A stretch of DNA of 64,000 nt, taken from positions 1 to 64,000 of the forward strand of contig PMSM01000010.1 of the NCBI GenBank assembly GCA_003168335.1, read 5' to 3'. This document shows positions 7,276 to 26,473 of the stretch, one piece after another. This DNA comes from Blastocatellia bacterium (GTDB taxonomy: Bacteria; Acidobacteriota; Blastocatellia; Pyrinomonadales; Pyrinomonadaceae). The notes beneath the pieces are model-generated. The model ran no database searches. It had not been told where the DNA came from and saw nothing but the letters and a program-made list of their open reading frames with translations. Within the stretch, counting starts at the first letter, position 1, and each line of letters begins with the position of its first letter. A program made the translations under genes and the position numbers.

Positions 7276-8295
7276 TCAGGGGGCAGCCTTGAATCGTAGA
7301 GGCAGGTTGACCAGTAACGGATTGCCCGGTTTGGTTGCCACCCGATAGATCGTCTGGCCGCCGACTTCTTCTTCGGTGGCTTCCTCGCCGTCCTGGTCGA
7401 TGCCTTTCGATTTAAGAACCTGGCCGATACTGTTCTCCATGTCGAACTGCTGCACTGCAGTCTTCCACTGGGCCAGCCACCCTTCGAACTCTCCCGGGTT
7501 CAAAGCGAGCTGTTTCTCACTGATCCGGGAACTATCAACCAAAGGTTTTGGAGAGACGATTATCGTCAGCACTTCGGTCGTTTGCACCTTTCTTGCTTCG
7601 CCTTCTTTCAATGCGCGCGGCTTGAATCTCCACACACTCGGATACGCGGGGACCTCAATGGGCGTCCAGGGCTCGAGCAAATTATTGCCCTTCCTCGTCC
7701 TCAAGGTTGGGAAAACTAAAGTAGCTGGTCCCAGCGACCCATCCGCGTACTGCTCCCGATCGACGATATAGAGGTAACCGCCCGTGGCAGGTTGAAGCCG
7801 CAGTCTAATGGTATCCCCATTTGTGTATGGAGCATTCGTATCCATTCGTTCAATGGTCTGTTCGGCGCCTTCCTGGTCCACCCCTTTACTCTGACCAGCG
7901 TCGACGCGCAAAATTGTTACCCCCACCTGCGCGAATTCGGTTCCGGCGGGGGCAGACCCGTTAACGAAACGCTTCGGCGTCCGCAGCGTGGTCGATCGCG
8001 TCGTTTTCTTGTGCTTTGGGTTGGTCTTGACGCCGGCTTCAGCAGGCCGCAACCCTTTCGAGCCCTCCTCGTCCTGCTGATCATCGTTCTTGCGCTCGAC
8101 GCTTCTACTTTGTTGTTGACTTTCGGTCTGGCGCTCAACGCCCTTCGATCCTTCCTGAGCGCTGGAGTTGTCATCTTTACGCTCTTTGCTGTTGCTAGGC
8201 TGAGCGTCAATGGCATTCAAGCCAACCAGGCACAGGATGATCACACATCCGATGAAGAACAACACAGCTCTTTGAGGTTTCGTCTTGGTGCGCAT
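7276..8295 (-). CDS. Exported DUF4384-like protein
   Basis: 339 residues. A signal peptide (PQRAVLFFIGCVIILCLVGL, cleavage near AIDAQ) is followed by a charged Ser/Gln/Lys/Glu-rich linker (residues 33-105) and then a globular domain with GGYLYIVDREQYADG and LVFPTLRTRKGNN. The pattern, a strand reading GYLY(I/V)x(D) followed by LFP and a basic loop, is that of DUF4384, a domain often found with bacterial caspases and Ser/Thr kinases. The start has AAGGGAAG just upstream. The gene begins 44 bases after the kinase stop, and the kinase itself ends in a related domain, so the two may share a ligand. A broken copy of the same domain lies at 26.5-26.8 kb on the other strand. Confidence 0.65.
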   Translation of the reverse strand: MRTKTKPQRAVLFFIGCVIILCLVGLNAIDAQPSNSKERKDDNSSAQEGSKGVERQTESQQQSRSVERKNDDQQDEEGSKGLRPAEAGVKTNPKHKKTTRSTTLRTPKRFVNGSAPAGTEFAQVGVTILRVDAGQSKGVDQEGAEQTIERMDTNAPYTNGDTIRLRLQPATGGYLYIVDREQYADGSLGPATLVFPTLRTRKGNNLLEPWTPIEVPAYPSVWRFKPRALKEGEARKVQTTEVLTIIVSPKPLVDSSRISEKQLALNPGEFEGWLAQWKTAVQQFDMENSIGQVLKSKGIDQDGEEATEEEVGGQTIYRVATKPGNPLLVNLPLRFKAAP

Positions 8296-8339
8296 AGCTT
8301 CCCTTTCACGAATAAGCCAATTGGTTTAGTAGCGACAAA

Positions 8340-11303
8340 TCAAAAATTCATGTGCTTGAGAACAAGTTCTTTACCTTTTTCTTTGCCCTGGTAAACGACG
8401 AGATCGCCCTGGCCTCTAACGGTGGTCTGTTTCCTGTCGCTGTCGGTTTCAGCCTTAGGCAGAGGCGATTCATGTTTCGTCAAAAACGACGAAATAGTTT
8501 CAATCTGGGCGGGGTTCTTGATTTCGAAATCAGTCCTGGCGGCGTCTTTACAGATCTTTTCGAGATCAGGAATCGGCTGTGCCGCCCAGATTATTGACAT
8601 ATATTCGGAACCTGGAGTGGTGTCAAATTTGATCTTGGCTTCCATTCTTTGATTAGCCCCGAGAGTAGATGACCCGGCATTGTTCTCTGGGGCTGGAAAC
8701 AAGACATACCAGCTGGTGCGATTGTTGGCGTCAACGCCCCTATCCAGCAGGTAAAGCGATCCTGATTGCTCTGGAGTCAAAACAAACAGGAACCTATCTC
8801 CATTGCGAAAACGTTCATTGCCCGTGAAGCGCTCATCTTCCGCGCTGTTACTCTTCCCAGCGGGTGTTAAGAAGTAGGTAAAGACACGTGGCGACGCGGC
8901 GGTGGCATCGCTAATTGAGTTCGTTTTCTTGATTGGCTCAACCTTGATGAAATTTCGAGCCAGGAAAAACCCGCCCGTCAGAACAACGACCAGGGCCGCG
9001 GCAACGGCGAGCCAGCGCACGGTTTTTCCGGATTGAGATTTCGTCCGGCCCAGCTTTGCCGGCACTTCAGCGTTGCCAATTTCGTCGTTGTAGAGGTTAT
9101 AGATGTGGACGCGATCGCCATGCTTGACGACAGCTTCGCCCAAGTCGTGCAGGTCTTTCTTCCAGCGGCCAAGTTGCCCAAGATCGTCGGCCACTCGCTT
9201 TGAAAGAAGGATGTGTCCCGCATCGCCACAATCCATGACGCGCTGGGCCATGTTGATGCCGCCACCAGATATGTTCAAGTTCTCGTTGACATCATTGATA
9301 CGATGGACGAGCCCGCTGTTCACGCCCATCCGCAGCTTGATGCCGGGATGTTCGCGGAGCGACCTACTAACTTCCACGGCGCAGCGCACTGGAGATTCGG
9401 GATCACGAAAAAAACTCAGAGCCATCCCGTCACCTGTAGGTAAGCTCAGCAACTCGCCGGCGCCTTGAGCGTTTTGAAACTCCTGCGTGCCGCGCACAAT
9501 GTCCTTTAGTTCCTTCAGACGATCGCTCTGTTCGTCGATCAGCATGCTCGAATAGCTCACGATATCCATGAACAGCACATGAGCAGTCTGCAGTGTCGGC
9601 GACTGAGCCGATTCCGGGGGCGTTTCCGGTCGCTGAAACTTTGCCGGCAACTCCGGGTTTCCGACTTCCTCCGTGTAAAGGTTGTATACGTGGACGCGAA
9701 CAAGATGTTTGACCTCGACTTCACCCAGATCGTGAAGAGCTGTCGACCATCGGCTCAACTGGCTGAGATCATCGGCGTCTCTCTTGGAAACGATTATGTG
9801 GCCCGCATCACCGCAGTCCATCACGCGCTGCGCCATGTTGATGCCGCCGCCGGCGACATTCATATTCGCGTTGATGTCCTCGATGCGATAGACCAACCCG
9901 CTATTCACCCCCATACGCAAACGGATCTTAGGATGAGTTTTCAGCTCTTTAGCGATCTCGACCGCACACCGAACGGGGGCTTCCGGATCGCCGAAGAAGC
10001 TCAGGGCCATGCCATCGCCGGTGGGCAAGCGCAGTAGTTGACCGGCCGCTTGCGCGCGTTGGAACTCCGGCGTATTGCGCACAATTTCCTGAAGCTCCAC
10101 GAGGCGTTCGCTTTGCTCGTCGATCAGCAGCTTTGAATAGCCGACGATATCCGAGAAAAGCACGTGGGCCGTTTCCAGCGAGGCCGGCTCCCCTTTGGCT
10201 CGTACTGGAATCGTTGGCGGCAACTGTTTCTTCCTGGAGGCGTCTGCCGCCTTCCCTTCAGGCATGTCTCTGGTGGTTACTTCGCCCGCGTCGTACTCGG
10301 CATTCAGCGCCCGGCCGAGCTGTTCTCCAAAGTCCTGTGCCCGTTGAAAGCGATCCTCGGGGTCAAAACTGAGCGCCTTGAGAATAATCTCCTGAGCTTC
10401 TTCCGGCAGGCTCGGCCGCAAATCCGCCGGCTTAACGCGCACACCTGCACGCTGCATATCGAGAAGCTGATATATCGAGTCGGGGGTAAACGGCTTCCGT
10501 CCCGTTACCATCTCATAAGCGATTACTCCGAGCGCATAAATATCACTCGTCGCAGTCAAGGGCCTCGCACTGAACTGTTCCGGAGACATATAGCCGATGG
10601 TGCCGGCGGTCATGCCCGTCGCGGTACTTTGCCCAGAGACCGAGTTCCTAACCTTCGCAATTCCAAAATCGATGATCTTTACCTGCCGCTCGCCCGATTT
10701 GGTCGTGCGCAGCATGATGTTTTCCGGCTTCAGATCGCGGTGCAGAATGCCAGAGTCATGCGCGGCAGTGACGCTGCGTCCGACTTGTCTAATGATGTCG
10801 GCGGCCTCTGCAAGGTCGATTCCCTCGGGCTTGATAAGAGCGCGCAATGTCGAGCCGTCAACATATTGCATGACGAGATAAGGAGAGCCATCGTCAAGCG
10901 TTCCGGCATCGAAAATTCCCACGATTCCTGGATCGTCGAGCCGAGTCATGGATTCAATTTCCCGCTGAAACCTCCCAATAACCAACTCGTTTCTCAGCCC
11001 CTCTTCCAGCAGCACTTTTACGACCACCGGCCGCGAATGCAACTCCGGTTTGTCGCGCGCCAGATACACTGCTCCCATTCCGCCACGTCCCAACTGGCGC
11101 TCAATCAGATAACGTCCTCCCAGCTTCATGCCGATCAAACTTGGCTTGGCCGGAGCTGTGGGCCGCGTTGGCTGTTTGGGTTGATCGCCGCCGGGGGGAT
11201 CGTGTTCGGCGTCCAGAGGCATGATTCGTCTGTAGGCTAACTTAGGATCAGGATTCGAGCGTCTTTGCGCGCAGAGTCTATGACAGATTTCCGTCTTTGT
11301 CAC
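8340..11303 (-). CDS. Transmembrane Ser/Thr protein kinase with two tandem class III cyclase-like domains and DUF4384-like outer domain
   Basis: 987 residues from a GTG that directly abuts the stop of the upstream caspase gene; an ATG at 11222 is an alternative and leaves all domains intact. Kinase domain about 62-335: glycine loop GRGGMGAVY, catalytic Lys96 (VVVKVL), HRDLKPEN (188-195), DFG (212-214), SPE (240-242). Two cyclase-like domains follow (about 378-545 and 573-745), about 70% alike by eye. Both keep the two metal aspartates (SDI/MDI at 385/580 and GDG at 430/625) and the Asn/Arg pair (INMAQR), but the usual substrate Lys before GDG is replaced by LPT. A membrane helix spans about 763-782, and residues 800-987 resemble DUF4384 (SLYLLDRG, VLFPAPENN). 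Topology would put kinase and cyclases inside and the last domain outside. Confidence 0.88.
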   Translation of the reverse strand: MTKTEICHRLCAQRRSNPDPKLAYRRIMPLDAEHDPPGGDQPKQPTRPTAPAKPSLIGMKLGGRYLIERQLGRGGMGAVYLARDKPELHSRPVVVKVLLEEGLRNELVIGRFQREIESMTRLDDPGIVGIFDAGTLDDGSPYLVMQYVDGSTLRALIKPEGIDLAEAADIIRQVGRSVTAAHDSGILHRDLKPENIMLRTTKSGERQVKIIDFGIAKVRNSVSGQSTATGMTAGTIGYMSPEQFSARPLTATSDIYALGVIAYEMVTGRKPFTPDSIYQLLDMQRAGVRVKPADLRPSLPEEAQEIILKALSFDPEDRFQRAQDFGEQLGRALNAEYDAGEVTTRDMPEGKAADASRKKQLPPTIPVRAKGEPASLETAHVLFSDIVGYSKLLIDEQSERLVELQEIVRNTPEFQRAQAAGQLLRLPTGDGMALSFFGDPEAPVRCAVEIAKELKTHPKIRLRMGVNSGLVYRIEDINANMNVAGGGINMAQRVMDCGDAGHIIVSKRDADDLSQLSRWSTALHDLGEVEVKHLVRVHVYNLYTEEVGNPELPAKFQRPETPPESAQSPTLQTAHVLFMDIVSYSSMLIDEQSDRLKELKDIVRGTQEFQNAQGAGELLSLPTGDGMALSFFRDPESPVRCAVEVSRSLREHPGIKLRMGVNSGLVHRINDVNENLNISGGGINMAQRVMDCGDAGHILLSKRVADDLGQLGRWKKDLHDLGEAVVKHGDRVHIYNLYNDEIGNAEVPAKLGRTKSQSGKTVRWLAVAAALVVVLTGGFFLARNFIKVEPIKKTNSISDATAASPRVFTYFLTPAGKSNSAEDERFTGNERFRNGDRFLFVLTPEQSGSLYLLDRGVDANNRTSWYVLFPAPENNAGSSTLGANQRMEAKIKFDTTPGSEYMSIIWAAQPIPDLEKICKDAARTDFEIKNPAQIETISSFLTKHESPLPKAETDSDRKQTTVRGQGDLVVYQGKEKGKELVLKHMNF

Positions 11304-14300
11304 TCACGGTTTCGCTACGATCAGAGGCTGAACGTCGGCCTCGCGGCGATAGAATACTCTCGGTTGCTGTACCTTTGCTTTCTCCGCAACTTCTACTTCC
11401 TCCAGCGCCTTGCCATGTTTCTTAGCCAGCTGCTCAACCTGCGCTTGTCTCAGTCGTGGCACCGCTTGCGTTGCGTAGTCGAACCATTCCCTAAGCAACA
11501 CCTGGCCATCTTTCGGCGCTTGATCTGCTGCTCCGGTTTTCAACCCCTCTTCGATCAACGCGTAAGTCAGATAGCTATGCTTTAAAGCCTCCGACTCATA
11601 AGCCAGCTCGACGTTTTGCGAGGCAGTGAGGACATACATTCCCTTCTCATATGCCAGTTGGGCCAGTCCCTTAGTGTTCATCGGGCCGCGCCGCTTCTCT
11701 TTCGCCTCTAAAGCCTGCCCGGAATTACAGGCGTCAATTACCAGCAGCAGTTGCCCGGCATCAATTCCGCGAAAAGCTTCCTCCAGCTCAAGGTCGGAAA
11801 CGCTGTGCGCCAGAATAATTTCTAACCCCGCCGCTCGAAGTTGCGCGCGCGCGCCCGTGAAACCCAGATCATGCGGGATGAGATAGAACCTGTCTTTCTG
11901 TGCCGTGCCGTGACCAGAGAAGTAGACGATCGCGCCGTCCTCAGGCTGTACCGCCCCGGCAAATGTTTTCAGCGCCGCAAGGATATTAGCTTTCGTCGCC
12001 TCTTGATCGAACAATCGAGTCACTTCAACGCGCTGATAACGACCAACCTTCTCCTGCTGGCGTTTGATTTCGTCGGCGAAGTCCTGGGCGTCACTAACTG
12101 TGTAATTGAGGTTGTACCGCGGATTGGCGTATTGGCCAACGCCGATTGCCAGGACATACAGTACGCCTGCTCGCTGCAAATTCTCAGCTCCGCTGAGGGT
12201 TAGCACGGCATCGCTGCTTTTGATGTTATCGCGATTGAATGCATAGGCCGTCAGACGATTCTCTCCCGCGACAATCGGAATCGTTGCCACCAAAGTCGCG
12301 CTCGATTTTCCTTGCAGCACATCGCCGCTCCAAACTTTCACCAGCGACCCGTTGCGAAACAACCGCACATCCTGCGCGCCGCTGTCTGTCCTCTGCCTTT
12401 CATTAGCGGGAGCGGCTGTGACTTCCACCTGAACCGTGATTTCACGTTGCGCAATGGCAGAATTTGGCGTGCCGGCGTTTGCCTCTGTCAGCCGGACGAC
12501 TGGCTGTCGAATGTCTTTGTGCGCGATGCTCACTTCAGACTGTGGATGCTCACCGGCCATGATTTCGGCGAGCAGATCAGGATGGTAGAAGTCGGAGAAG
12601 AAGGCTTCCACCGGTGCGACATCAGCCGTGTTTTGCGTAAAGCGCCAGAGCACTTGCGCCCATGCTCCCGCCGAACCGTCAAATAACCCGCCGGGCGCCA
12701 CCACTAACCAATCCCGTTCATCAACAGCGACCAGCCGGGCGAGTTCGTCACCCTTCGCCACGTCAAGAAGTTCAATCGAGTTGTTCTCTGCGCTCGCGAT
12801 CAAGACTTGTCCGTCGTGACTGAAAAAGCTGGAGCGCACCCAAACGCCGTGATCTTGTGCGATCGTGCGCAGTTCGGTTTTAGTCTCAATATCGAGTAGC
12901 TTGATGGCCCGTTGATTCTGTGCCACGGACAAGTTGATCGCCAGGGTGCTTCCATTCGGACTGAACACAATCGCCTCTGGAGAGTACCCGCGTTCGGTCT
13001 TAAGCTCCTGTGTTGTTCCCGTGTCGATGTTCCAGAGCCGAACCCTGACTCCCAATTCCTCTCCTTTTGCGGCAACAACTCGAGCTAGAGTTTTTCCATC
13101 GGAGCTGAAAGCGACGTGGTAAGAGTAGCTGCTGCTTCCTGGCGCGCCGCCGCCACCCTCAAGTCCGAAGTCATCGAAGTCGCGGATCTTTGCTGAGCCG
13201 TCGAACTGCCAAAGCTCAATTGTTTGCCCTTTCTCTCGCGCGACCGCTCGCGCGAAGGCGTTGCCCGCTGGACTGAAGACGATCCCCGGACGGCCTGAGA
13301 AAGTGTCGGCCTGGTTATGATCGCCTCCCAGGGAACGCAACGCGCGCCCTGTGGCAGCGTCCCAATATTTCAGGCCGCGTTTGCTATCAGGCACCAGTCC
13401 GGAACCATGCCAGGTCACGAGCATCTGCGCGTCGGCGCTGAAGGCAACTGCACTCACTTCCGAAAAGGCGTCGCCCTTGAAACCATATAGCCGCTGACCA
13501 GTCTCTATGTCCCAAACGGTAAGTTCACCTTCTGCCTCGTGACCACCGCCGGCCGCCAAACGCTGACTGTCAGGGCTGAAGGCTAGGCTGTGGACTCGCT
13601 GTTGGCCGTGATCAGGCAAAGCCAGCGGCTCTTTACCGGCGCTCAAATCCCACAACAGCACTTGTCCGGTGGTGCTGCCGGTGGCCAGATACTTCCCGTT
13701 GGGACTCACGGCCACAGCCGCGGCATCCTGTGACCGCTTGCGAAGTTCGCCGACTTGTCGCCCGGTCGCAACTTCCCAGAGATAGACCGTCGCACCCCAC
13801 GAGTTAGCCAACAATCGCCCATCGGCGCTGAACGCGACTTTCGACGAACCTCCCGGCAGACTTCGTATGACCCGACTCGTCGTTAGATCCCAAAGCGTGG
13901 TTTCGTTCCCCTCACTGCCGACGGCCAGCGTACGCCCGTCGGGGCTGAACGCTAACGACTCGCCACCAGTCTTGAGCGTGCGCAGAAGCTTTCCATTGCT
14001 TACGTCCCAGAGCTTAAGCGAATAGATGTCAGCGGTGGCAAGCGTCTGCCCGTCAGCAGTGAAAGCAATGACATTTGCCCCGAGATCATGTCCGCCGAGC
14101 ACTGCGCGCACTTTGCCGGTCTTAACTTCCCAGAGACGAACTCCAGGGTCCGAGCCTGCGTGCTTGCCTGTGGCGGCGGCTAAAACCGCTCCGTCAGGAC
14201 TGAAAGCAAGATGGTCCGGGATTTGGCCAGGGGCGCTGAGAACGCTGACGACCTGGCCGCTGTCTATGTCCAGCAGACTAATTTTGTCGAGTGTGAAACC

Positions 14301-14765
14301 GCTCACGAAAGCGAGCGTCTTACCGTCAGAAGTCAAAGTGGCGGCGCCCTCTGCCTCGGGAATCTTTATCGCCTGCCCCGTGTTGACGTCCCAGAGCCTG
14401 ACCCCTTTGGTGGAAGACAACAGCCTGCCATTAGCGCTTAAACTAATCGCGTTCTGATTAGCCAAGCTCCCCTTGTTCAGCAGAGAGCGGACCTGTCGGC
14501 CCGTTCTGACGTCCCACACCACCACCGGTCCGTCGCCGCCGCCGCTGACGACGTATCTGTCGTCGGCACTAAAAGCGACGGCGGCAACCGAATTGGCGTG
14601 ACCAGTTTGGACGATGAGTTCTGGCCTCTGCGCGAAGGTCAGATTAAGGGTGACTAAAACTAACAGGAATGTCGGTAGTAAAAGAACCGACCGAGAGCGC
14701 AGCAAGCGGCTCCATTCTCGCTTGGAAACATATGCTTCACGAATTCGCTTCATGAGACGTGACAT
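11304..14765 (-). CDS. Exported WD40-repeat caspase-like protease (peptidase C14)
   Basis: 1153 residues. An N-terminal hydrophobic segment (VLLLPTFLLVLVTLNLTFA) precedes LIVQTGHAN and about fourteen WD40 blades (up to about residue 690), enough for two seven-bladed propellers. A linker with VRLFRNGSLVKVW and NRLTAYAFNRDNIKS leads into a caspase-like domain (about 865-1095) with catalytic His952 in YFSGHGTA and Cys1013 in IDACNSGQAL. The end (PRVFYRREADVQPLIV) is shared with two paralogs here. The ATG overlaps the end of the cyclic-nucleotide-binding ORF by 29 bases, and the stop touches the GTG of the kinase gene, so the genes are probably translationally coupled. Substrates are unknown; caspase-like enzymes cut after Arg/Lys or Asp depending on family. 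Confidence 0.88.
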   Translation of the reverse strand: MSRLMKRIREAYVSKREWSRLLRSRSVLLLPTFLLVLVTLNLTFAQRPELIVQTGHANSVAAVAFSADDRYVVSGGGDGPVVVWDVRTGRQVRSLLNKGSLANQNAISLSANGRLLSSTKGVRLWDVNTGQAIKIPEAEGAATLTSDGKTLAFVSGFTLDKISLLDIDSGQVVSVLSAPGQIPDHLAFSPDGAVLAAATGKHAGSDPGVRLWEVKTGKVRAVLGGHDLGANVIAFTADGQTLATADIYSLKLWDVSNGKLLRTLKTGGESLAFSPDGRTLAVGSEGNETTLWDLTTSRVIRSLPGGSSKVAFSADGRLLANSWGATVYLWEVATGRQVGELRKRSQDAAAVAVSPNGKYLATGSTTGQVLLWDLSAGKEPLALPDHGQQRVHSLAFSPDSQRLAAGGGHEAEGELTVWDIETGQRLYGFKGDAFSEVSAVAFSADAQMLVTWHGSGLVPDSKRGLKYWDAATGRALRSLGGDHNQADTFSGRPGIVFSPAGNAFARAVAREKGQTIELWQFDGSAKIRDFDDFGLEGGGGAPGSSSYSYHVAFSSDGKTLARVVAAKGEELGVRVRLWNIDTGTTQELKTERGYSPEAIVFSPNGSTLAINLSVAQNQRAIKLLDIETKTELRTIAQDHGVWVRSSFFSHDGQVLIASAENNSIELLDVAKGDELARLVAVDERDWLVVAPGGLFDGSAGAWAQVLWRFTQNTADVAPVEAFFSDFYHPDLLAEIMAGEHPQSEVSIAHKDIRQPVVRLTEANAGTPNSAIAQREITVQVEVTAAPANERQRTDSGAQDVRLFRNGSLVKVWSGDVLQGKSSATLVATIPIVAGENRLTAYAFNRDNIKSSDAVLTLSGAENLQRAGVLYVLAIGVGQYANPRYNLNYTVSDAQDFADEIKRQQEKVGRYQRVEVTRLFDQEATKANILAALKTFAGAVQPEDGAIVYFSGHGTAQKDRFYLIPHDLGFTGARAQLRAAGLEIILAHSVSDLELEEAFRGIDAGQLLLVIDACNSGQALEAKEKRRGPMNTKGLAQLAYEKGMYVLTASQNVELAYESEALKHSYLTYALIEEGLKTGAADQAPKDGQVLLREWFDYATQAVPRLRQAQVEQLAKKHGKALEEVEVAEKAKVQQPRVFYRREADVQPLIVAKP

Positions 14766-15054
14766 TCGTCAGCTTCTCCACGACGTCTGTGCTAATAACT
14801 TTCTGCAGAGCAAAACTCATGCTCGGATTACTCTTTAGTAGTTGTTTCAAGTTCGCCTTTGACCATATCAGATATTTTGTTGGCTCAGTTGCTCTGACCG
14901 TAGCCGTCGCAACCCCTCCCTTTATGAAACTGATCTCGCCGATAAAGTCTCCGTCCTTTAGTTCAGTTATCTTTCGGCCGCCCGCTTCCACACCGGCAAT
15001 CCCGTTATAGATCAACATCACCGGATCCGTCTCCTCTTTTTCGCGGATGAGCAC
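14737..15054 (-). CDS. Cyclic-nucleotide-binding-domain protein (start uncertain)
   Basis: From a GTG at 15054 this gives 105 residues with a cNMP-binding fold: GEVLIREKEETDPVMLIYNG, then GRKITELKDGDFIGEISFI, then ATATVRATEPTKYL and a C-terminal helix. DGDFIGEISF is the phosphate-binding cassette region; the usual Arg-Thr/Ala pair is not clear. The first strand and helix of the domain (IKIFFSVAVIDRRQW) are encoded further upstream in the same frame, to about 15120, but that stretch has no ATG, GTG or TTG and overlaps the end of the preceding caspase gene in another frame; the frame closes at 15151-15153. So either a short form starts at 15054, or a -1 frameshift joins it to the caspase, or the gene is damaged. 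It may sense a nucleotide made by the downstream kinase/cyclase protein. Confidence 0.6.
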   Translation of the reverse strand: MLIREKEETDPVMLIYNGIAGVEAGGRKITELKDGDFIGEISFIKGGVATATVRATEPTKYLIWSKANLKQLLKSNPSMSFALQKVISTDVVEKLTNVTSHEANS

Positions 15055-15092
15055 TTCGCCTTTGTCGGCCGCGGCCCATTGCCGCCGGTCTA

Positions 15093-18000: not shown

Positions 18001-18797
18001 AAAAGTGACCCAACTGAAGAAGCATGCCCCGTGAGAGTCACTATTTCTTTGCCACTATCGGTGTCCCAAATCTTGATCGTATTGTCATCGCTTCCCGACG
18101 CCAGAGTCTGGCCATCGGCGGCGAATGCAACGGACCGGATTCCGGAAGAATGTCCCGCGAGCGTTCTTAGTTCTGCCCCACTTTCAATGTTCAAAATCTT
18201 GATCAAATTGTCGTTTGTCCCAGCCGCGATAGTCTTTCCATCCGGGCTGAAGGCGAAGGACTCGACACTATGAGGATGCAAGATTCCGGTGCCAACGGAA
18301 TGCCACGTGAGGGTCCTGATTTCTTTTCCGGTCGCTATGTTCCAAAGCTTGATTGCGCTGCCCGGGCCTCCGGACGCTAACGTCATTCCATCTGGGCTGA
18401 ATCCGAGCAACTCCACAAAATTAAAAGACCCGGGCGGTCCCGCGAGGGTTCGTAATTCCTTTCCAGTTTCTATGTTCCAAAGTTTGATCGTATTGCTCAT
18501 GTCTCCCGACGCCAAAGTCTTGCCGTTCGGGCTGAACGCAACTGACCAGACGCGATCAGAATGTCCCGTGAGAGTCCGCAGTTCTCTTCCGCTTTCTGTG
18601 TTCCAAAGCTTGATTGTCTTGTCGTCGCTTGCTGACGCCAGCGTCCTGCCATCCGGGCTCAAGGCGATTGCGGTGACCGCATCGGAATGGCCCGTCTGTA
18701 CGACGAGGTCAGCTTTTTGCGCTTTTGTGTTGATTGCTTTCCCGGCAAGTAACGACAGCAAAACAGCGAGAGTGATCCCGAAATTCTTAATCTTCAT
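15093..18797 (-). CDS. Exported WD40-repeat caspase-like protease (peptidase C14), divergent member
   Basis: 1234 residues with a signal peptide (MKIKNFGITLAVLLSLLAG, cleavage near NTKAQ), then LVVQTGHSDAV and about fifteen WD40 blades with strongly repeated text (LTGHSSGVSSVTFSPDGKT type). The caspase-like domain lies at about 915-1150, with catalytic His1009 in MYSSHGYA and Cys1066 in VDACHSAAA. It differs from its neighbours in lacking the FYRRE..QPLIV tail, in the linker (a Cys-rich KCNKLNNCDQE stretch near residue 740), and in visibly more A+T-rich DNA, so it may have a separate origin. The ATG immediately follows the stop of the upstream paralog. Its end overlaps the open frame of the cyclic-nucleotide-binding ORF. 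Confidence 0.88.
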   Translation of the reverse strand: MKIKNFGITLAVLLSLLAGKAINTKAQKADLVVQTGHSDAVTAIALSPDGRTLASASDDKTIKLWNTESGRELRTLTGHSDRVWSVAFSPNGKTLASGDMSNTIKLWNIETGKELRTLAGPPGSFNFVELLGFSPDGMTLASGGPGSAIKLWNIATGKEIRTLTWHSVGTGILHPHSVESFAFSPDGKTIAAGTNDNLIKILNIESGAELRTLAGHSSGIRSVAFAADGQTLASGSDDNTIKIWDTDSGKEIVTLTGHASSVGSLLFNSDGKVLTSAGFDNAMKTWNTGSGQALRNLSWEPRPAKCLALSRDGKTFASGSADNEIRVWNTESGKALSLLRGHSSGVGSVAFSPDGQTLSLRNGDEVPALKIWNIDGGKELRTLITGQTSSEMVFVYSPDGKTMATEGPENTIKLWNLESGKEIETLRGHSDSVVSLAFSADGKTLASASGDNSIKLWNTIRGTVLRTFTETSFAFGSLAFSGDGTKLAVGSGDESAMITIWNTITGRKLRLKAKEVSYDPIESMAFSPDGRTLASGSDANSITIWSATTGKELRTLTGHSSGVSSVTFSPDGKTLASGSVDNTIKLWNAASGAEIETLTGHIAGVTSVSFSADGKALASGSSDGKTKIWNVATGKEICSLIALDESDWVVTTPDGRFDTNRIEDSQGLHWVVSDDPLKPIPLEVFMRDYYEPQLLPRLLKCNKLNNCDQEFKPVRDISKLNRVQPPVKISNVSLPDAEGCVNVTVEVGRGEGKYLVNGKESMRTTGVYDVRLFRDGQMVGSWPSDGAGKLLQQTSKDFASNERLASEKRLTKELQDWQQVTAVKTDTGVKIDPKTGMMTLPPFRVKLPRGKDASQIEFSAYAFNEDRIKSQTAKWEWPSEVIAKLPKAQPVKPRAYIIAVGVNAYENADFDLEFAADDARRMSTVISAQLKAGGQYEQVVPVTLVSDYETRDCQKVPTAKQATKDNFRTVLELLAGNNTNRKLLDGVENANQLQKASPDDLVLIMYSSHGYADRAGNFYFIPYDTGSGKGKVFTETVRQHSISSEELSLWLRDVDAGEMVMIVDACHSAAAITGQDFKPGPMGSRGLGQLSYDKGMRILTATQSDNVAWEYPTLKQGVLTYALLRDGIEARQADHNKDNAITLAEWLGYGLERVPKLYQEVLTNSVQTFGVKPEVQPKLTLTAKECGRATGRKELEEVLVEQDNKSRATQQPSLFDFTRKKPEVVLSRYSSASP

Positions 18798-21700
18798 CTA
18801 TCTCCTGTCGCGTTCCTTTGCTGCTATCGGTTGTACTGTCGCGACGATCAGCGGTTGTGCGTCGGGCTCGCGGCGATAAAAGACCCGCGGAGTCTGACTC
18901 TTCTGATTCTTGACTGCCGCTTTCCTCGCCGGATTGACCTCTTCCAGAGACTTGCTCTGCAGCGTTTCTTCTCTCAGCTTCGGCACGCGGGCCAACGCAT
19001 AATCAAACCATTCCCGCAAAGTGACTTCACCATTGTGATCGGCGTCTGCGGCTTTCGTCTTCAAGCCTTCCTCGACCAGGGCATAGGTCAGGTAACTGTG
19101 CTTCAACTTCTCGGAAACAAAAGCCTCCTCGACATTCTGGGAAGCGGTCATTATGTACATGCCTTTTTCGTAGGCCAGCTGCGCTAAGCCACGCGTGTTC
19201 ATCGGGCCTCGCCGCGGTTCGTCTTTGTTCTCCAGCGCTTGTCCGCTGTTGCAGGCATCGATGATCATGAACATCTGTCCGGCATCGATACCGCGAAATG
19301 CTTCCTCTAACTCCAAATCAGAGATTGAGTGTGTGAGTATTTGCTGCAGGCCTTCCGCCGACAACTCGTCGCGAGACCCTGAATACCCCAAGTCATGTGG
19401 AACAAGATAGAAGTGATCGCCGCTAGCTTTTCCGTGTCCTGAGAAGTAAACAACCACTCCATCCTCGGGTTGCACGCTGGCAGCGAGCTTCTTTAACTCT
19501 GCGAGGATGTTCTCCTTGGTAGCACTCTCATTCAAAAGCGTCTTGATTTCCACTGACTCGTACCGACCCAGCTTCTCCTGTTGCAACTTCAACTGACCGG
19601 CCAAAGATGCGGCGTCGTCGGTTGTGTAGTTAAGGTTATACTCCCGGTTCGCGTACTGGCTCACTCCGACAGCCAGAATGTGCAGCGTGCCTTTGCGCTT
19701 CAGCGAATCAGCGCCCGTAACGGTCAGCGCAGCATCGCTGCTCTTGATGTTGTCGTGATTGAAAGCGTAGGCGGTGAACTTGTTTTCACCGGCGACAATC
19801 GGAATAGTCGCCTCAAACGTGACGCCGCTTTGTCCCTTCAACACATCGCCGCGCCACACCTTTACGAGAGACCCGTTGCGGAACAAGCGCACGTCCTCCG
19901 CTCCGCTTCCCGTTTTGTGGTCTTTGTCGGCGGCTAGCTCTGCGACATCAAGCCTCACCGCCACATTGCGCGTCGTCAGCGTCGCATTAGAGAGCGGATC
20001 AGGTAGCGTTAGTTTTAGCTGCGGCTGGCGACGGTCTTTCTGTGAAATATCCGATGCCGCTTTGAGCTGCTTACCGGCAAAGACATCGGTGAGCAGACCT
20101 GGATAGTAGAAATCGCCGAAGAACGCTTCAACGGGCGCATGGTCAAAAGTATGGTTGTTGAAGCGCCAGAGGATCTTGTTCCATGCGGTGGACGTGCCGT
20201 CGAAAAGACCATCGGGCGTAACTACCAGCCAGTCGTTTTGATCAAGAGCAATCAACGCGGCGAGTTCCTGGCCGGAACCGACGTCCCAGATTTTGAGCGA
20301 GGAATCCGAATTTCCACTGACTAAGTACTTATTATTCGGACTGAAGGCAATTGAGTTGACAGAAGCAGAGCCGCCCGTGAAAGTGCGCAATTCGATGCCG
20401 CTCTGCACATCCGAGAGTGCCAGGCTACCGTTCCAACTGCCACCGGCGAGCATTCTTCCGTCGCTACTGAACGCGATTGGGGAACCGAGCCCTTTTAGTG
20501 TCCGCAACTCTCTGCCGCTCGAGAAATCCCAGAGTTTTACAGTACTCTTAACATCTCCCCTGCCGATACTCGCAGTGGCGAGAGTCTTGCCATCAGGACT
20601 GAAAGCAAGATCCTCGACGAGACCACCTTCGGGATGTATTTTGAGAGGTAGCAAATCAGTACCTGTCGAAATATTCCGGAGTCTTACCGTACCACCCTCA
20701 CCGTAGGCAAGTGTCTTGCTGTCCGGGCTAAAGGCGATCGAACTGCCGAAGCCCATGAGAGTTTGTAACTCTGCGCCTTTCTCGACATCCCAAAGCTTAA
20801 GAGTACTGGAGTACATACTTCCACTGGCGAGAATCTTCCCATCAGGACTGAAGACAACTGATGCGATACCAGCAGGACGATCATGAACTGGGTCGAGACT
20901 GCGCAACTGTCGGCCGGTCGAGACCTGCCAAAGCTTGACGGTACCGTCGACCCCGCCTCCGCTCGCGAGAACCGTGCCTTCAGGGCTGAACGCAACTGAC
21001 GAAACAACTCCGGAATGACCTTTGACAGTCCGCAACCCGCCTGTCGAGACGTCCCACATCCTCACCGTACCATCACCACTTCCGGCAGCAAGCGTTTTGC
21101 CATCGTTGCTGAAAGCAGCCGCCTCGACAAATTCAGAATGCCCCTTCAAAGCTCCCACGTCTGATCTGGTCGTGAGATCCCAAAGCTTAATCGTGCTGTC
21201 CGCACTTCCGGTGGCGAGTGTCCTGCCATCGGGACTGAAGGCGACTGGGCTGAAATATCCATTGAGAACAGCAAGGCCGGCGCCCGTCGAAACATCCCAG
21301 AGTTTCACACTATTCTGCCGGCCCCCGCTCGCGAGTATCTTTCCATCAGGACTGAAGGCAACTGAATTAACTGCAGTAACTGAACCACTCCCGGCTTCGA
21401 TCCGGCGCAACTCTGCCCCCGTCGAAACGTCCCAAAGCCTGATGGGGCCGTTCATGCCGGCGCCCGCGAGCAGTTTCCCGTTCGGGCTAAAGGCAACACA
21501 GGAGACATGGCTAGCTTTCATACTGCCTAACTCTGTCCCCGTCGAGACGTCCCATAGCTTAACGATGCCCTCCCACCAGTCTCCGCTGGCGAGAAGTTTC
21601 CCGTCGGGGCTGAACGCAGCCGAATCAAAATGAGAATGAGCTGTGGGGTCAAGCATACGCAGTCGGGCGCCCGTTGAGGTGTCCCAGAGAAAATTATCGC

Positions 21701-22124
21701 CGGCGATAATTCTTCCGTTCGGACTCAACGCAACCGCGGTGACAGAAAAATTGAGATCGCGCAACTTTGCGCCGCTCGAAACGTCCCAAACAGCCAGGCG
21801 AATCATGTCCCCGCCGACGATAATTTTCCCTTCAGGCCCGAAAGCCAGCAAACCGCCTGCGTCTTCGATAGTGCGCAACTGTTCACCTGTCGCGAAATTC
21901 CAGAACTTGATCGTCCTGTCTTCACCGCTGCTGGCGAGAGTTTTTCCATCCGGACTGAAGGCTAGCGAGCTGACCTTGCCAGAATGTCCGGTCTGCACAA
22001 CGAGTTCCGGAGGGTTCGAGGAGGATGGAGCTTTCTGGGCCCAGCAAAGCGTACTTGCAAAGATCAGCAAGCCCAGTGAAGCCCAACCCGGATGATTCTT
22101 AATCTTCAACACTCCGTCTTTCAT
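18798..22124 (-). CDS. Exported WD40-repeat caspase-like protease (peptidase C14)
   Basis: 1108 residues: a signal segment (ASLGLLIFASTLCWAQ), LVVQTGHSGKV, about fourteen WD40 blades, then the caspase-like domain with His897 in YFSGHGKA and Cys958 in IDACNSGQAL. A calcium-type loop DADHNGEVT near residue 1030 recalls an EF-hand-like turn in the C-terminal half of the domain. The tail PRVFYRREPDAQPLIV matches the paralogs at 11304 and 22393. Its TAG stop is directly followed by the ATG of the next caspase gene, a zero-base junction that argues for co-translation. Confidence 0.88.
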   Translation of the reverse strand: MKDGVLKIKNHPGWASLGLLIFASTLCWAQKAPSSSNPPELVVQTGHSGKVSSLAFSPDGKTLASSGEDRTIKFWNFATGEQLRTIEDAGGLLAFGPEGKIIVGGDMIRLAVWDVSSGAKLRDLNFSVTAVALSPNGRIIAGDNFLWDTSTGARLRMLDPTAHSHFDSAAFSPDGKLLASGDWWEGIVKLWDVSTGTELGSMKASHVSCVAFSPNGKLLAGAGMNGPIRLWDVSTGAELRRIEAGSGSVTAVNSVAFSPDGKILASGGRQNSVKLWDVSTGAGLAVLNGYFSPVAFSPDGRTLATGSADSTIKLWDLTTRSDVGALKGHSEFVEAAAFSNDGKTLAAGSGDGTVRMWDVSTGGLRTVKGHSGVVSSVAFSPEGTVLASGGGVDGTVKLWQVSTGRQLRSLDPVHDRPAGIASVVFSPDGKILASGSMYSSTLKLWDVEKGAELQTLMGFGSSIAFSPDSKTLAYGEGGTVRLRNISTGTDLLPLKIHPEGGLVEDLAFSPDGKTLATASIGRGDVKSTVKLWDFSSGRELRTLKGLGSPIAFSSDGRMLAGGSWNGSLALSDVQSGIELRTFTGGSASVNSIAFSPNNKYLVSGNSDSSLKIWDVGSGQELAALIALDQNDWLVVTPDGLFDGTSTAWNKILWRFNNHTFDHAPVEAFFGDFYYPGLLTDVFAGKQLKAASDISQKDRRQPQLKLTLPDPLSNATLTTRNVAVRLDVAELAADKDHKTGSGAEDVRLFRNGSLVKVWRGDVLKGQSGVTFEATIPIVAGENKFTAYAFNHDNIKSSDAALTVTGADSLKRKGTLHILAVGVSQYANREYNLNYTTDDAASLAGQLKLQQEKLGRYESVEIKTLLNESATKENILAELKKLAASVQPEDGVVVYFSGHGKASGDHFYLVPHDLGYSGSRDELSAEGLQQILTHSISDLELEEAFRGIDAGQMFMIIDACNSGQALENKDEPRRGPMNTRGLAQLAYEKGMYIMTASQNVEEAFVSEKLKHSYLTYALVEEGLKTKAADADHNGEVTLREWFDYALARVPKLREETLQSKSLEEVNPARKAAVKNQKSQTPRVFYRREPDAQPLIVATVQPIAAKERDRR

Positions 22125-22126
22125 TC

Positions 22127-22312
22127 TTAGCTGCTGTCGGCGACGTCGTCTACCGCCCGAGCGGTTACCGGCAAATCGTCGATGCGTTGAAAGGTTAACC
22201 TGCTTTTTTGCTTAGTTCTTGGTGTTTGACCCGCAGGATTCAGGTAGACAATGAGTATCAGAAGAACAGCAGCCCTGATTATTTTATGGTGATACCAGAC
22301 AACCTGTTTCAT
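22127..22312 (-). CDS. Possible small membrane or exported protein
   Basis: 61 residues, MKQVVWYHHK followed by a hydrophobic run IIRAAVLLILIVYL and a polar C-terminus. The TAA stop is two bases from the ATG of the following WD40-caspase gene. The N-terminus looks like the signal segments of the neighbouring caspase proteins, so this could be the leftover 5' end of another family member rather than a working gene. I see no family match. Confidence 0.3.
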   Translation of the reverse strand: MKQVVWYHHKIIRAAVLLILIVYLNPAGQTPRTKQKSRLTFQRIDDLPVTARAVDDVADSS

Positions 22313-22392
22313 CCTATTTATCCACCGCGAGCCTCTTGGGATGCTTGTCGAAGCATGACTCGTTGAATGGTGTAGTTTTAGACCAGTGAATG

Positions 22393-25300
22393 CTACTTGG
22401 TGACGCCTACCCTTGCAACAACCATCGGCTTGGCGTCAGGCTCGCGGCGATAGAAGACACGCGGGCGCTGGATGTTTCGCTTTGCGGGGTCTTTGATATT
22501 CTCATCGCCTTCGACAAAGACCATCTCCAACTCTCTGCCTTGCCGGTCCTTGAGCCCCGACGTCGCTTTCATCTTTTCTTCCTGCATCCGGGGCACTTGG
22601 TCGGTCGCATAGTTGAGCCACTCGCGCAAAACTATCGCACCATCCTTGGGCTCATCGTCGGCGGCGCCGTGTTTCAGTCCCTGTTCAATGAGCGCGTAGG
22701 TCAAATATCCGTGCCCTAGTCTTGACGCTTCCCATGCCGCCTGATAACTCTGCGCGGCGGTCAGAATGTACATTCCTTTTTCGTAAGCAAGCTGCGCCAG
22801 ACCTTTTGAGTTCATCGGCCCTCGCCGCTTTTCTTCCGAGTCGAGCGCCTGTCCCGAGTTGCACGCATCAATCACCATCAGCATTTGCCCCGCATCAATC
22901 TTCACGAACGCCGCTTCCAACTCCCTGTCAGAGATGCTGTGCTGAAGAATAGCCTGCAGGTCCGGCTCTGAGAGTTTCGTGCGCGGACCCCGATAACCCA
23001 GATCATACGGAATGAGATAGAAACGCTGCTGCTGAGCTGTGCCGTGTCCTGAGAAATAGACAACCACGGCGTCCTCCGGCTGCGCCTGCTCAGCCAACCG
23101 AGAGAGTGCCTGAAGAATATTCGCCTTCGTGGCATCTTTGTCATACAAAGGCACGACCTCGACGCGCGCATAGTTTTTCAGCGTTTCTTGTTGGCGCTTA
23201 ATCTCTGCTGAGAAATCTTCAGCATCAGGTACAGCGTATTTCAGATCATATTGCGAATTGCTGTAACTGTTGACTCCGACAGCGAGGACGTAAGCTATGC
23301 CTTGGCGCTGCAAACTCTCGGCGCCGTTGACTACCAGTTTTGCATCCTGACTCTTGATATTGTCTTTGTTGAAGGCGTAAGCGGTGAAGTTGTTCACCCC
23401 GGCCACAATCGGCACGGTCACGGTGCAGATGCTGCGCCGCGCTTCGAGGTTTGAACTCCGTTGTAGTATGCAACCTTCCTTTTCCGTTATAGCGAACAGA
23501 TCTCCTTCCCAGAATTTTACCAGCGAGCCATTGCGAAACAGGCGGACATCGCGGGCCCCGCTCTCAGGCCACCAAGGTACCGCCAATCTGACACCGAACT
23601 CTGGTGCCTCCTCAATCTCAATCTGCAGCTGAACCGTGCGCGCGGCCACAGGTGTCTGCGGATCACTATTTTTTACTGTTGTCAGCTTGACTGGAATTTG
23701 CCGCCGGTCCTTCCCTTCCAGGAACGTCCCTGCAGTGGGACGCTTGCCGGCCATGATGTCAGCGAGCAGACCGGGATAGTAGAACTCGGTAAAGTAGGCT
23801 TCAACCGGAGTGACCTCGAACGGGTTCCGCGGGTATGTCCAGGCAATCCTGTCCCAGGCTGCGGGAGACCCATCGAAAAGTCCGTCGGGCGTGATCACAG
23901 TCCAATCCTGATCGTCCAGAGCAATCAACGTGGCCAACTCCTGGCCGCTGGCTGCCTCCCAAATCTTGATCGTCAGGTCATCGCTGGAACTAATCAGAAG
24001 CTTCCCGTCAGCCGGGAATGCGACCGACAGGACGTGACCAGAGTGACCAGTAAGCGTGCGCAGTTCTTTTCCGGTGTCGAGATTCCACAGCCTGATCGTG
24101 TTGTCGTCACTGCCAGACGCCATCGTCTTCCCGTCAGGGCTGAAAGCGATATTGCAGTCACCGGAGGCGTGGCCCGGGAGCGTGCGCAGTTCAGCGCCGC
24201 TGCTAGCGTCCCACTGCGTGATCCCCGCAGTCATCACTTGATCGATGAATTTCAGAGTGCGACCCCAGATCGTTTTGCCATCGGGACTGAAGGTAAAATT
24301 ATCACCGCCGCCACCTTTCAGGGTGTGAAGTCTCGTGGCCGTCGCGACGTCCCACACAAAGAGTTCGTTCATGCTGTCGGTAACCAGGGTCTTGCTATCT
24401 GGACTAAAGACAATTGCGTGCACGATGTTCGCGTGATCTGCGAGCGTGTGTAGTTCGATACCCGATGCCACATCCCATAGTTTGACTTCCTTGAACCCTC
24501 CGGCGGCAAGAATCTTACCGTCCGGACTGAAGGCGATCGAGCCGACTCCGCTACTAGGGCGTTCAAGCGTGCGAAGTTTTGTGCCGCTCGCCACGTCGTA
24601 GAGTTCAATGCGATCATCGTTGTCCTCGCCCGCGAGAATTTTTCCATCCGGGCTGAAGGCTTTGGGAATGGGTACGTCGCTCCTTACTGAAAGCCAAGGG
24701 AGTCTATGAAGTTCGCTGCCCGTGCTGACTTCCCAAATCCTTACGGGATCTTGGGCGCCGCTGGTGACGAAGAACTGACCGTCAGGACTGAAGGTAAGCG
24801 AAAGAAACTCCGCGACGTGTGGCGCAATCGTGCGGAGCAGAGCGTCTCGACTGGAGAGGTCCCAAAGTTTTACAGTGCGGTCGGTGCTGCCCGCCAAAAT
24901 AATCTTACCCGCGCGGCTGAACTGATTCGTAAAGATACCGCCGGAATGGCCCTCAAAAGTGCGCTGCACAACGCCGCTGCCGACATCCCACACCTTGATC
25001 GTCCGGTCGCTGCTGCCACTCACCAGCGTCCGACCGTCTGGACTGAACGCGACACTCAACACCTCGCTTGCATGTCCGCTGAGCGTTCTTTCCGCACCGC
25101 TCTTTAAGTCCAGCAAAGTGATCGTCCCGCGATAGTTTGCGCTCGCCAGGGTGAGGCCGTCCGGACTGATGGTAAACGCGTCGATCCGGCCGGCCGTTGC
25201 CGGAAGGCGCCGCAACACCTGGCCGGTGTGGACATCCCAGACCGTGATCTCGTTGTCAGATGCGCTAAGTATAGTTTGACCATCGCGACTGAAAGCGACG

Positions 25301-26064
25301 GTATTTACCTCGTAAGAAGGACCTTTCAGATTGTGAATCACCGTGCCGGTGCTCACGTCCCACAACTTCATTGTGTTTTCAGTACCGCCGCTTACCAGCA
25401 GCCTGCCGTCAGGACTGAAGGCGATCGAATTTACATTCGGCGGATGCAGTTGCCCGGGGAGTCGAGGTTCAATGACGTTAGCAAGACTGCGCAGTTCCCG
25501 ACCCGAAGAGACGCTCCACACCTTAATGAGACCATCGACGCTGCCGCTGGCCAGAGTCCCGCCATCCGGACTGAATGCTACTGAGGTGACCGGACCGCTA
25601 TGGCCGCTCAGCGTGCGCCACAGTTTGCCTGTCGCGGGGTCCCACAGCTTGACCAGGTTATCCCCGCCGCCGCTGGCGAGAAAAGATCTATTCGGATCGA
25701 AGGCGATGGCAAGGACGCTGTAGGTATGTCCCTTGAGCGTGCGAAGTTCGGCGCCGGTGGCGACGTTCCAAAGTTTTACGGTCTGATCACTGCTGCCGCT
25801 GGCGAAAATCTTTCCGTCGGGGCTAAAGGCGACGGTGTGAATCCAGCCGGAGTGGCCCGTTTGGATTACGAGCTCTGGTTTTTGACCATGGGTCGCGGCT
25901 GAACAAGCCAGCAAGAGGATGCCGATAGCGTGCACACGGAAAACAGCTTGCCCCGCAGCGTTTGGTTTGCGCGCGAGGCGAGTGAGTAAACAGCGAAGGC
26001 CACGCAAATTTCGCATAACCGCATTTGCCTTATTGAACCCGAGCGGACGACCAGGAAACCTCAA
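22393..26064 (-). CDS. Exported WD40-repeat caspase-like protease (peptidase C14)
   Basis: Up to 1223 residues. The best signal-peptide core (VHAIGILLLACSAATHG) begins near residue 44, so the real start may be an ATG at 26016 or a GTG at 25935 rather than 26064. After LVIQTGHSGWI come about fifteen WD40 blades, then a linker with VRLFRNGSLVKFWEG and the caspase-like domain with His1007 in YFSGHGTA and Cys1068 in IDACNSGQAL (numbering from 26064). The tail PRVFYRREPDAKPMVV is shared with two paralogs. This is the first gene of the array; a 269-base gap with the small ORF separates it from the tightly packed rest, so it may have its own promoter. Confidence 0.86.
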   Translation of the reverse strand: MRFPGRPLGFNKANAVMRNLRGLRCLLTRLARKPNAAGQAVFRVHAIGILLLACSAATHGQKPELVIQTGHSGWIHTVAFSPDGKIFASGSSDQTVKLWNVATGAELRTLKGHTYSVLAIAFDPNRSFLASGGGDNLVKLWDPATGKLWRTLSGHSGPVTSVAFSPDGGTLASGSVDGLIKVWSVSSGRELRSLANVIEPRLPGQLHPPNVNSIAFSPDGRLLVSGGTENTMKLWDVSTGTVIHNLKGPSYEVNTVAFSRDGQTILSASDNEITVWDVHTGQVLRRLPATAGRIDAFTISPDGLTLASANYRGTITLLDLKSGAERTLSGHASEVLSVAFSPDGRTLVSGSSDRTIKVWDVGSGVVQRTFEGHSGGIFTNQFSRAGKIILAGSTDRTVKLWDLSSRDALLRTIAPHVAEFLSLTFSPDGQFFVTSGAQDPVRIWEVSTGSELHRLPWLSVRSDVPIPKAFSPDGKILAGEDNDDRIELYDVASGTKLRTLERPSSGVGSIAFSPDGKILAAGGFKEVKLWDVASGIELHTLADHANIVHAIVFSPDSKTLVTDSMNELFVWDVATATRLHTLKGGGGDNFTFSPDGKTIWGRTLKFIDQVMTAGITQWDASSGAELRTLPGHASGDCNIAFSPDGKTMASGSDDNTIRLWNLDTGKELRTLTGHSGHVLSVAFPADGKLLISSSDDLTIKIWEAASGQELATLIALDDQDWTVITPDGLFDGSPAAWDRIAWTYPRNPFEVTPVEAYFTEFYYPGLLADIMAGKRPTAGTFLEGKDRRQIPVKLTTVKNSDPQTPVAARTVQLQIEIEEAPEFGVRLAVPWWPESGARDVRLFRNGSLVKFWEGDLFAITEKEGCILQRSSNLEARRSICTVTVPIVAGVNNFTAYAFNKDNIKSQDAKLVVNGAESLQRQGIAYVLAVGVNSYSNSQYDLKYAVPDAEDFSAEIKRQQETLKNYARVEVVPLYDKDATKANILQALSRLAEQAQPEDAVVVYFSGHGTAQQQRFYLIPYDLGYRGPRTKLSEPDLQAILQHSISDRELEAAFVKIDAGQMLMVIDACNSGQALDSEEKRRGPMNSKGLAQLAYEKGMYILTAAQSYQAAWEASRLGHGYLTYALIEQGLKHGAADDEPKDGAIVLREWLNYATDQVPRMQEEKMKATSGLKDRQGRELEMVFVEGDENIKDPAKRNIQRPRVFYRREPDAKPMVVARVGVTK

Positions 26065-26227: not shown

Positions 26228-26473
26228 TTAATTGCACGAAGCCCAATAGTACACCCACCAGCACCCGTACGGGTTGCACGAAAGTTGGCGGTAGACGCAG
26301 ATGTCACTATATGACTCTACTTCGCCCAGGCTCTCAGCATTACTCATCTTGGTAGGGTTCATTGCTCCGGTGCTTCTGGGGATATCGGCGCCCGACTTCT
26401 TCTGGCGCTCGGGAAACATCTGCGCTGCTTTCTCGCCCGTAATTGCGTATTGCGAAAGCACGCTATCGGGCAC
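26228..26473 (-). other. Unassigned small ORF with Cys/Trp-rich C-terminus
   Basis: An 81-codon frame from a GTG (a 39-residue version could start at an internal ATG, MSNAESLGE). The last 25 residues are unlike a random frame: ICVYRQLSCNPYGCWWVYYW ending in ASCN, with four cysteines. A small secreted peptide or ribosomal-peptide precursor is conceivable, but no ribosome-binding site is convincing and no modifying enzyme is adjacent. The 900-base region 26065-26965 otherwise holds no intact gene apart from the DUF4384 remnant. Confidence 0.2.

What the first reader, a model, noticed from the sequence alone, without database searches (positions are those of the whole stretch)
7276..26064. Tandem exported WD40-caspase array with a cyclase-like kinase and a cyclic-nucleotide-binding ORF in one tightly coupled block
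Four full-length proteins of about 1110-1230 residues share a signal segment, about fourteen to fifteen WD40 blades and a C14 caspase-like domain with intact His and Cys. Between 22124 and 7276 the genes lie end to end: zero-base junction at 18797/18798, 29-base overlap at 14737-14765, zero-base junction at 11303/11304, then a 44-base gap to a DUF4384-like gene. The embedded partners are a cyclic-nucleotide-binding ORF and a Ser/Thr kinase carrying two class III cyclase-like domains and a DUF4384-like outer domain. This suggests one pathway: outer signal, kinase/cyclase, nucleotide sensor, caspases. I know of caspase-WD40 and kinase-cyclase proteins separately, but not of this ordered set. The set as a pathway is inference.
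Basis: partly seen in the sequence, partly recalled or inferred. Interest (0 to 1): 0.8.

Follow-up and report, generated by a model that had tools for sequence, protein, structure and literature searches.

The report
Kinase, DUF4384 and caspase/CHAT envelope module
An unnamed acidobacterium carries four exported caspase-like proteins next to a membrane kinase; relatives show that this kind of kinase, a small exported partner protein and a caspase-family protein form a recurring gene set, while the cyclic-nucleotide "sensor" here looks like a broken fragment.

Summary
The proposed pathway is only partly right.

Supported and widened: kinase-TM-DUF4384, an exported DUF4384 protein and a caspase-family protein recur together in Acidobacteriota. 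Of 23 loci with this kinase, 18 hold a caspase or CHAT gene, against 0 of 29 loci with other kinases. In a named scan seeded with the exported DUF4384 protein, 40 of 54 loci hold a caspase or CHAT gene and 35 of 54 the kinase. The window's order, caspase, kinase/cyclase, DUF4384, recurs in three other genomes.

Not supported: the cyclic-nucleotide ORF is a 5'-truncated fragment; intact relatives lie away from module genes in 6 of 6 loci checked. The cyclase is optional and in one module has lost catalytic residues. The caspases look exported, so a cytosolic nucleotide sensor could hardly act on them directly.

Best reading: an envelope receptor module in which exported caspase-fold proteins report through DUF4384 to a transmembrane Ser/Thr kinase. 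Direction of signalling is inference.

The parts
22393..26064 (-). exported WD40-caspase 1 (1223 aa from TTG; export segment about 44-61 residues in, so the true start is probably internal)
18798..22124 (-). exported WD40-caspase 2 (1108 aa)
15093..18797 (-). exported WD40-caspase 3 (1234 aa), of a different caspase lineage (28-31% identical to the other three over linker+caspase)
14737..15054 (-). cyclic-nucleotide-binding ORF: 5'-truncated fragment of a longer cNMP-binding protein; homology starts near 15078, upstream of the GTG
11304..14765 (-). exported WD40-caspase 4 (1153 aa); groups with the caspases that sit next to kinase/cyclase genes in three relatives
8340..11303 (-). Ser/Thr kinase - two class III cyclase-like domains - one TM (about residues 764-782) - DUF4384-like C-terminal domain (987 aa from GTG)
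7276..8295 (-). exported DUF4384-like protein (339 aa)
6582..7205 (-). short WD40 protein with an N-terminal export segment and a weakly caspase-like tail (Peptidase_C14 E 0.19, below cut-off): possible remnant
26450..26824 (+). fragment of an exported DUF4384 gene, on the other strand

Best explanation
The block is an enlarged copy of a recurring Acidobacteriota envelope-signalling module. Shown by sequence: a kinase with one TM helix and a DUF4384 domain at its far end, a separate exported DUF4384 protein, and one or more caspase-family proteins with export segments (WD40-caspase, other caspase, or TPR-CHAT) are encoded together, often with short gaps or overlaps. Inferred: outside the cytoplasmic membrane the WD40 or TPR part binds a target, the caspase-fold part cuts or rearranges, the free DUF4384 protein is the substrate or go-between, and it acts on the kinase's own DUF4384 ectodomain, switching the cytosolic kinase and, where present, its cyclase. 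In this genome the module has three further caspases, from more than one lineage, and a second cyclase domain. The cNMP ORF is probably debris and not a step.
For: Caspase or CHAT gene in 18 of 23 loci with the DUF4384 kinase (16 of the 22 in the first set on the kinase's strand) against 0 of 29 loci with other kinases (Fisher p 8e-10). Other seed (exported DUF4384 protein, 54 loci, 45 assemblies by accession prefix): 35 with the kinase, 40 with caspase or CHAT (36 on the seed's strand), 27 with both; about 2 matches expected from the density in 36 genomes, 119 caspase and 360 CHAT matches. Many junctions are tens of bases or overlaps. Eight of eight proteins upstream of the DUF4384 gene that I sent to Pfam are TPR-CHAT, E 4e-64 or better. 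Order caspase-kinase/cyclase-DUF4384 in L045, L050 and L173, whose caspases group with two of the window's (100/99). N-terminal hydrophobic segments: 23/26 WD40-caspases, 22/23 other caspases, 23/33 CHAT, 52/59 DUF4384 proteins, 0/48 DUF4384 kinases. TM between kinase and DUF4384 in 42/48. Catalytic His and Cys in 51 of 52 aligned caspases, the last cut off at a contig end. DUF4384 at E up to 0.01 in 17/24 kinase tails and 14/16 free proteins; the two profiles match, probability 97.9%.
Against: No experiment. 5 of 23 kinase loci show no caspase or CHAT gene (L046, L061, L077, L078, L183; some at contig ends), nor do 14 of 54 in the other set, among them three kinase/cyclase loci. In two of the 18 the CHAT gene lies on the other strand. 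Six of 48 kinases had no clear TM by my rule. My export rule is loose: 247 of 553 unlabelled ORFs pass. Several caspases and many CHAT genes in these genomes stand away from the kinase, and linkage to the kinase is not clustered on the caspase tree. Related genomes were counted as independent. DUF4384 has no confident structural match in the PDB, so its role is inference.
Confidence: 0.6

Rival explanations
1. One reading: outer signal, kinase/cyclase makes a cyclic nucleotide, the cNMP protein senses it and drives the caspases.
For: cNMP domain is clear (1.6e-11) with an open frame of 105 codons; both window cyclase domains keep two metal Asp and the Asn/Arg pair.
Against: cNMP ORF lacks its 5' part and its family was found in no other kinase locus labelled; cyclase optional and decayed in L045; caspases look exported.
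Confidence: 0.05
2. The kinase controls an exported or surface attack system: the caspase-fold proteins are effectors that act on other cells or on foreign proteins, and the DUF4384 protein is a chaperone or anchor.
For: Number and kind of the proteases vary while kinase and DUF4384 stay; an ECF sigma gene lies directly upstream of the kinase in 8 loci.
Against: The kinase carries the same kind of domain outside the membrane as the free partner, which fits a receptor better (inference). Delivery genes were not searched for.
Confidence: 0.2
3. Genomic clustering only: gain and duplication of caspases beside a kinase without shared function.
For: Block has a DUF4384 fragment at one end and a possible caspase remnant at the other; paralogous caspases occur alone elsewhere in the genome (L041-L043).
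Against: Linkage recurs in many genomes with different protease types and tight junctions; 0 of 29 other-kinase loci.
Confidence: 0.1

Closest known systems
Bacterial caspase homologues (metacaspases/orthocaspases) with WD40 or TPR, incl. operons surveyed in PMC3501461
   Same: Peptidase_C14 with WD40; N-terminal helix possibly a signal peptide; multi-caspase operons; sigma-factor operons in Myxococcus (abstract, passages and section 13 read)
   Different: that survey (2012) reports at most three caspases per operon and names no Acidobacteria among groups with multi-caspase operons; the parts read name no kinase-DUF4384 partner
DUF4384 proteins
   Same: accessory domain of cyanobacterial orthocaspases (PMC7475262, PMC8283722, passages) and said to co-occur often with N-terminal kinase domains (PMC6426788, passage)
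   Different: there described as part of the caspase protein; here on a TM kinase and on a free exported protein that neighbours the caspase
TPR-CHAT proteins (Pfam CHAT)
   Same: TPR plus CHAT domain fill the protease slot in many modules
   Different: with export segment in 23 of 33 and linked to the kinase; many CHAT genes in these genomes are elsewhere
EACC1-caspase two-gene membrane system (PMC7159879, passages)
   Same: caspase plus membrane partner
   Different: caspases score 52-70 bits against a cut-off of 140; partner is a kinase and DUF4384
TOMM kinase/cyclase fusion (TIGR03903)
   Same: kinase plus cyclase
   Different: 143 bits against cut-off 706, only the kinase part matched

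Membership tests
Peptidase_C14 caspase homologues | caspase p20-like domain above Pfam cut-off | tested here: met
   all four
Peptidase_C14 caspase homologues | His and Cys present | tested here: met
   read; by alignment in 51 of 52 caspases of the labelled loci, the last cut off. A first pattern test matched both motifs in 23 of 26 WD40-caspases and 0 of 23 others; the alignment shows that pattern was too narrow
Peptidase_C14 caspase homologues | proteolytic activity | not testable with these tools
   needs assay
EACC1-associated caspase (NF047832) | score over curated cut-off | tested here: not met
EACC1-associated caspase (NF047832) | EACC1 gene 5' of the caspase | not tested
   no EACC1 model searched
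TOMM kinase/cyclase (TIGR03903) | score over curated cut-off | tested here: not met
Pycsar anti-phage system | cyclase linked to an effector with cNMP-binding and TM or TIR domain (definition recalled) | tested here: not met
   cNMP part is truncated, without TM or TIR; PADLOC hits cover only the cNMP domain; intact relatives have no cyclase match beside them
Class III nucleotidyl cyclase | two metal Asp, transition-state Asn and Arg | tested here: met
   both window domains, alignment; residue roles are recalled
Class III nucleotidyl cyclase | usual substrate-choosing residues | tested here: inconclusive
   not the common Lys pattern by eye (recalled motif)
DUF4384 (PF14326) | score over cut-off in the window's proteins | tested here: not met
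   17.7 against 27 for 7276-8295, no match for the kinase tail
DUF4384 (PF14326) | family-level match of the aligned relatives (E up to 0.01) | tested here: met
   17 of 24 and 14 of 16, profiles match each other

The most novel reading that the evidence does not exclude
A bacterial receptor pathway in which exported caspase-fold proteases (caspase or CHAT, interchangeable) sense or cut in the envelope and pass the signal through a shared DUF4384 partner to a transmembrane Ser/Thr kinase: an outside-in counterpart to the bacterial caspase systems described in the papers I looked at.
Probability: 0.35. Interest if true: 0.8.

Novelty: new variant of a known kind. Interest (0 to 1): 0.6.

Why it matters
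Bacterial caspase and CHAT proteins are, as I recall, mostly discussed as intracellular cell-death or defence enzymes. A module that repeatedly ties exported caspase-fold proteins to a membrane kinase through one shared domain would give a function to DUF4384, explain why these proteins carry export segments, and offer a small, testable three-gene system. It also corrects a tempting nucleotide-signalling story.

Tried and rejected
Rejected: cNMP ORF as a working sensor; Pycsar, EACC1 and TOMM membership. Led nowhere: Foldseek against PDB for both DUF4384 models gave no match at E 0.001 or better; phmmer of the C-terminal 293 residues of 11304-14765 against PDB gave none, and for a TPR-CHAT protein the 52 hits lie in its TPR part; a plasmid search with the DUF4384 protein gave none; promoter and terminator scans were at shuffle level, so co-transcription is untested. 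PADLOC kinase hits (PD-T4-6 and others) I take to reflect the kinase domain only. The caspase tree (24 rows) has 10 open forks and one very long row (L068_977), and linkage to the kinase is not clustered on it (107 of 500 shuffles as low). Short WD40 ORF 6582-7205 as an internally deleted caspase: only E 0.19 for the tail, left open. A first motif pattern for caspase residues was too narrow and was replaced by an alignment. Literature: six searches on related terms (one search found no paper) and one on Popeye domains (listing only). DUF4384 occurs in 5 held papers, of which I looked at passages of three. A paper outside this open library may describe the module.

Full report
Observation. The ORFs lie where stated. 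Four large minus-strand ORFs have WD40 repeats and a Peptidase_C14 domain over cut-off; the export segments and the His and Cys motifs can be read in the translations. The 8340-11303 protein is a kinase (1.2e-45) with a class III cyclase domain (5e-12), a second copy 70.7% identical to the first, one TM segment and a C-terminal domain. The 7276-8295 protein is exported by appearance and DUF4384-like below Pfam's cut-off. Junctions are as described, with the reservation that the kinase may start 27 codons further in.

The cNMP ORF. Stop to stop, its frame runs 14737-15150 and has no ATG, GTG or TTG before the GTG at 15054, yet homology to the cNMP family begins upstream of that codon. The closest relatives, including one elsewhere in the same genome (C10, 54% identical), sit in frames of 232-268 aa whose N-terminal hydrophobic part is absent here. 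They look like bacterial Popeye-type proteins (name recalled, not tested). The six loci with intact relatives (4-11 kb each) hold no kinase, cyclase, caspase, CHAT or DUF4384 match. A model of the family, run over the ORFs labelled, finds those six, the window and one weak hit in L042, a locus of the own genome with a lone caspase (E 7e-4). It is best read as a 5'-truncated fragment, although its frame is still open and a shortened product cannot be excluded.

The recurring module. I searched 60 genomes (the own and 59 relatives) with the kinase, fetched 40 stretches and labelled them with models grown from window sequences (CHAT model from eight Pfam-confirmed proteins). Of the 40, L041-L044 were chosen for own-genome caspases, and L040, L063, L064 and L075 hold a cyclase domain without the kinase; these eight were left out, as was the window. 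Of the remaining 32, 22 hold a kinase with the DUF4384 tail; 18 of these also hold a caspase or CHAT gene, 16 on the kinase's strand. The four without are L046, L061, L077 and L078. Ten loci hold only other kinases; none has a caspase or CHAT gene. As control I fetched 20 consecutive kinase rows (the own-genome row among them skipped): one (L183) proved to be a DUF4384 kinase with a DUF4384 neighbour but no caspase or CHAT gene; the other 19 have none of these. Together 18 of 23 against 0 of 29 (p 8e-10). Related genomes are counted as if independent.

A second, named scan used the exported DUF4384 protein as seed: 54 loci from 45 assemblies by accession prefix; 53 titles name acidobacterial groups and one Acidimicrobiia (grouping of names recalled). 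Of 54 loci, 35 hold the DUF4384 kinase, 40 a caspase or CHAT gene on either strand (12 caspase, 29 CHAT; 36 on the seed's strand), 27 both, 5 a kinase with cyclase and DUF4384. Fourteen have neither caspase nor CHAT. In 36 genomes (own included) caspase matches number 119 and CHAT matches 360, the latter a lower bound in two genomes, over about 191 million bases, so about 2 matches would be expected in the 0.83 million bases of these loci. These 36 genomes are not the same set as the 45 assemblies. Eight of eight proteins upstream of the DUF4384 gene that I sent to Pfam, seven of them downstream of the kinase and one in a locus without it (L137), are TPR-CHAT. In a sample of 199 genomes of the phylum 13 hold the exported DUF4384 family at E 1e-10.

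Same order as here. Their caspases fall with window caspases 2 and 4 in a set of seven (100/99), which also holds L065 and the lone own-genome L042. Window caspase 3 groups with L053 and L066. So the four-gene run is a mixture of lineages. A run of four WD40-caspases was not seen elsewhere in the labelled loci, but L053 has four caspases and a CHAT gene on one strand, and L054 three caspases in a row.

Cyclase. Besides the window, nine distinct loci have the kinase/cyclase with DUF4384 (L045, L046, L050, L059, L071, L156, L158, L168, L173). Four of these hold a caspase, one a CHAT gene (L071), four neither. In L045 a metal Asp reads Asn and the transition-state Asn reads Ser (roles recalled). 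Nucleotide output is therefore probably not needed by every module.

Compartment. N-terminal hydrophobic segments: DUF4384 proteins 52/59, WD40-caspases 23/26, other caspases 22/23, CHAT 23/33, DUF4384 kinases 0/48, unlabelled ORFs 247/553 (a loose rule; ORFs under 200 aa, near-copies and those starting at a locus edge dropped). The kinases have a TM between kinase and DUF4384 in 42 of 48; 29 of these 42 have more Lys/Arg before than after it. Kinase motifs HRDxKPxN and DFG are both present in 52 of 56. DUF4384 of kinase tails and of free proteins are related: Pfam in 17 of 24 and 14 of 16, profile match 97.9%, E 4.7e-13 over 87 columns. The kinase tail models well (pLDDT 88.6), the free protein in part (70.0), without a confident PDB match.

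Mechanism. Shared domain, shared compartment and linkage suggest that free DUF4384, the kinase ectodomain and the caspase-fold protein work together outside the membrane. I favour outside-in signalling (inference). Control of exported effectors is the main rival.

Literature. In this library DUF4384 occurs in five papers. I read passages of PMC7475262, PMC8283722, PMC6426788, PMC7159879 and PMC8195603, and passages, abstract and section 13 of PMC3501461. None of what I read names this module; PMC6426788 remarks that DUF4384 often co-occurs with N-terminal kinase domains.

Noticed in passing
L039, L053, L143 and others: Exported DUF4384 proteins carry a short conserved peptide just after the signal segment, roughly R-[QGKR]-[IL]-x-x-[DE]-x-[FV]-x-x-x-R-P: 30 of 59 by a strict pattern, many others with variants by eye; the window copy is degenerate. 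It could be a docking or cleavage site.
   Followed up: partly
window 26450-26824 (+): Fragment of an exported DUF4384 gene on the opposite strand at the far end of the block (E 3.5e-37 to the family model).
   Followed up: partly
window 6582-7205 (-): Short WD40 protein with an export segment and a tail weakly like the end of a caspase domain (E 0.19).
   Followed up: partly
L146, L147, L148, L153, L157, L159, L161, L165: An ECF-type sigma factor gene lies directly upstream of the DUF4384 kinase in these eight loci.
   Followed up: partly
L039 (G000:C13:392000-411000): The same genome has two more modules facing each other: kinase-DUF4384-CHAT and caspase-kinase-DUF4384.
   Followed up: partly
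36 genomes: CHAT genes are very common in these relatives, 48 and 49 matches in two genomes of one family, most of them away from the module.
   Followed up: no
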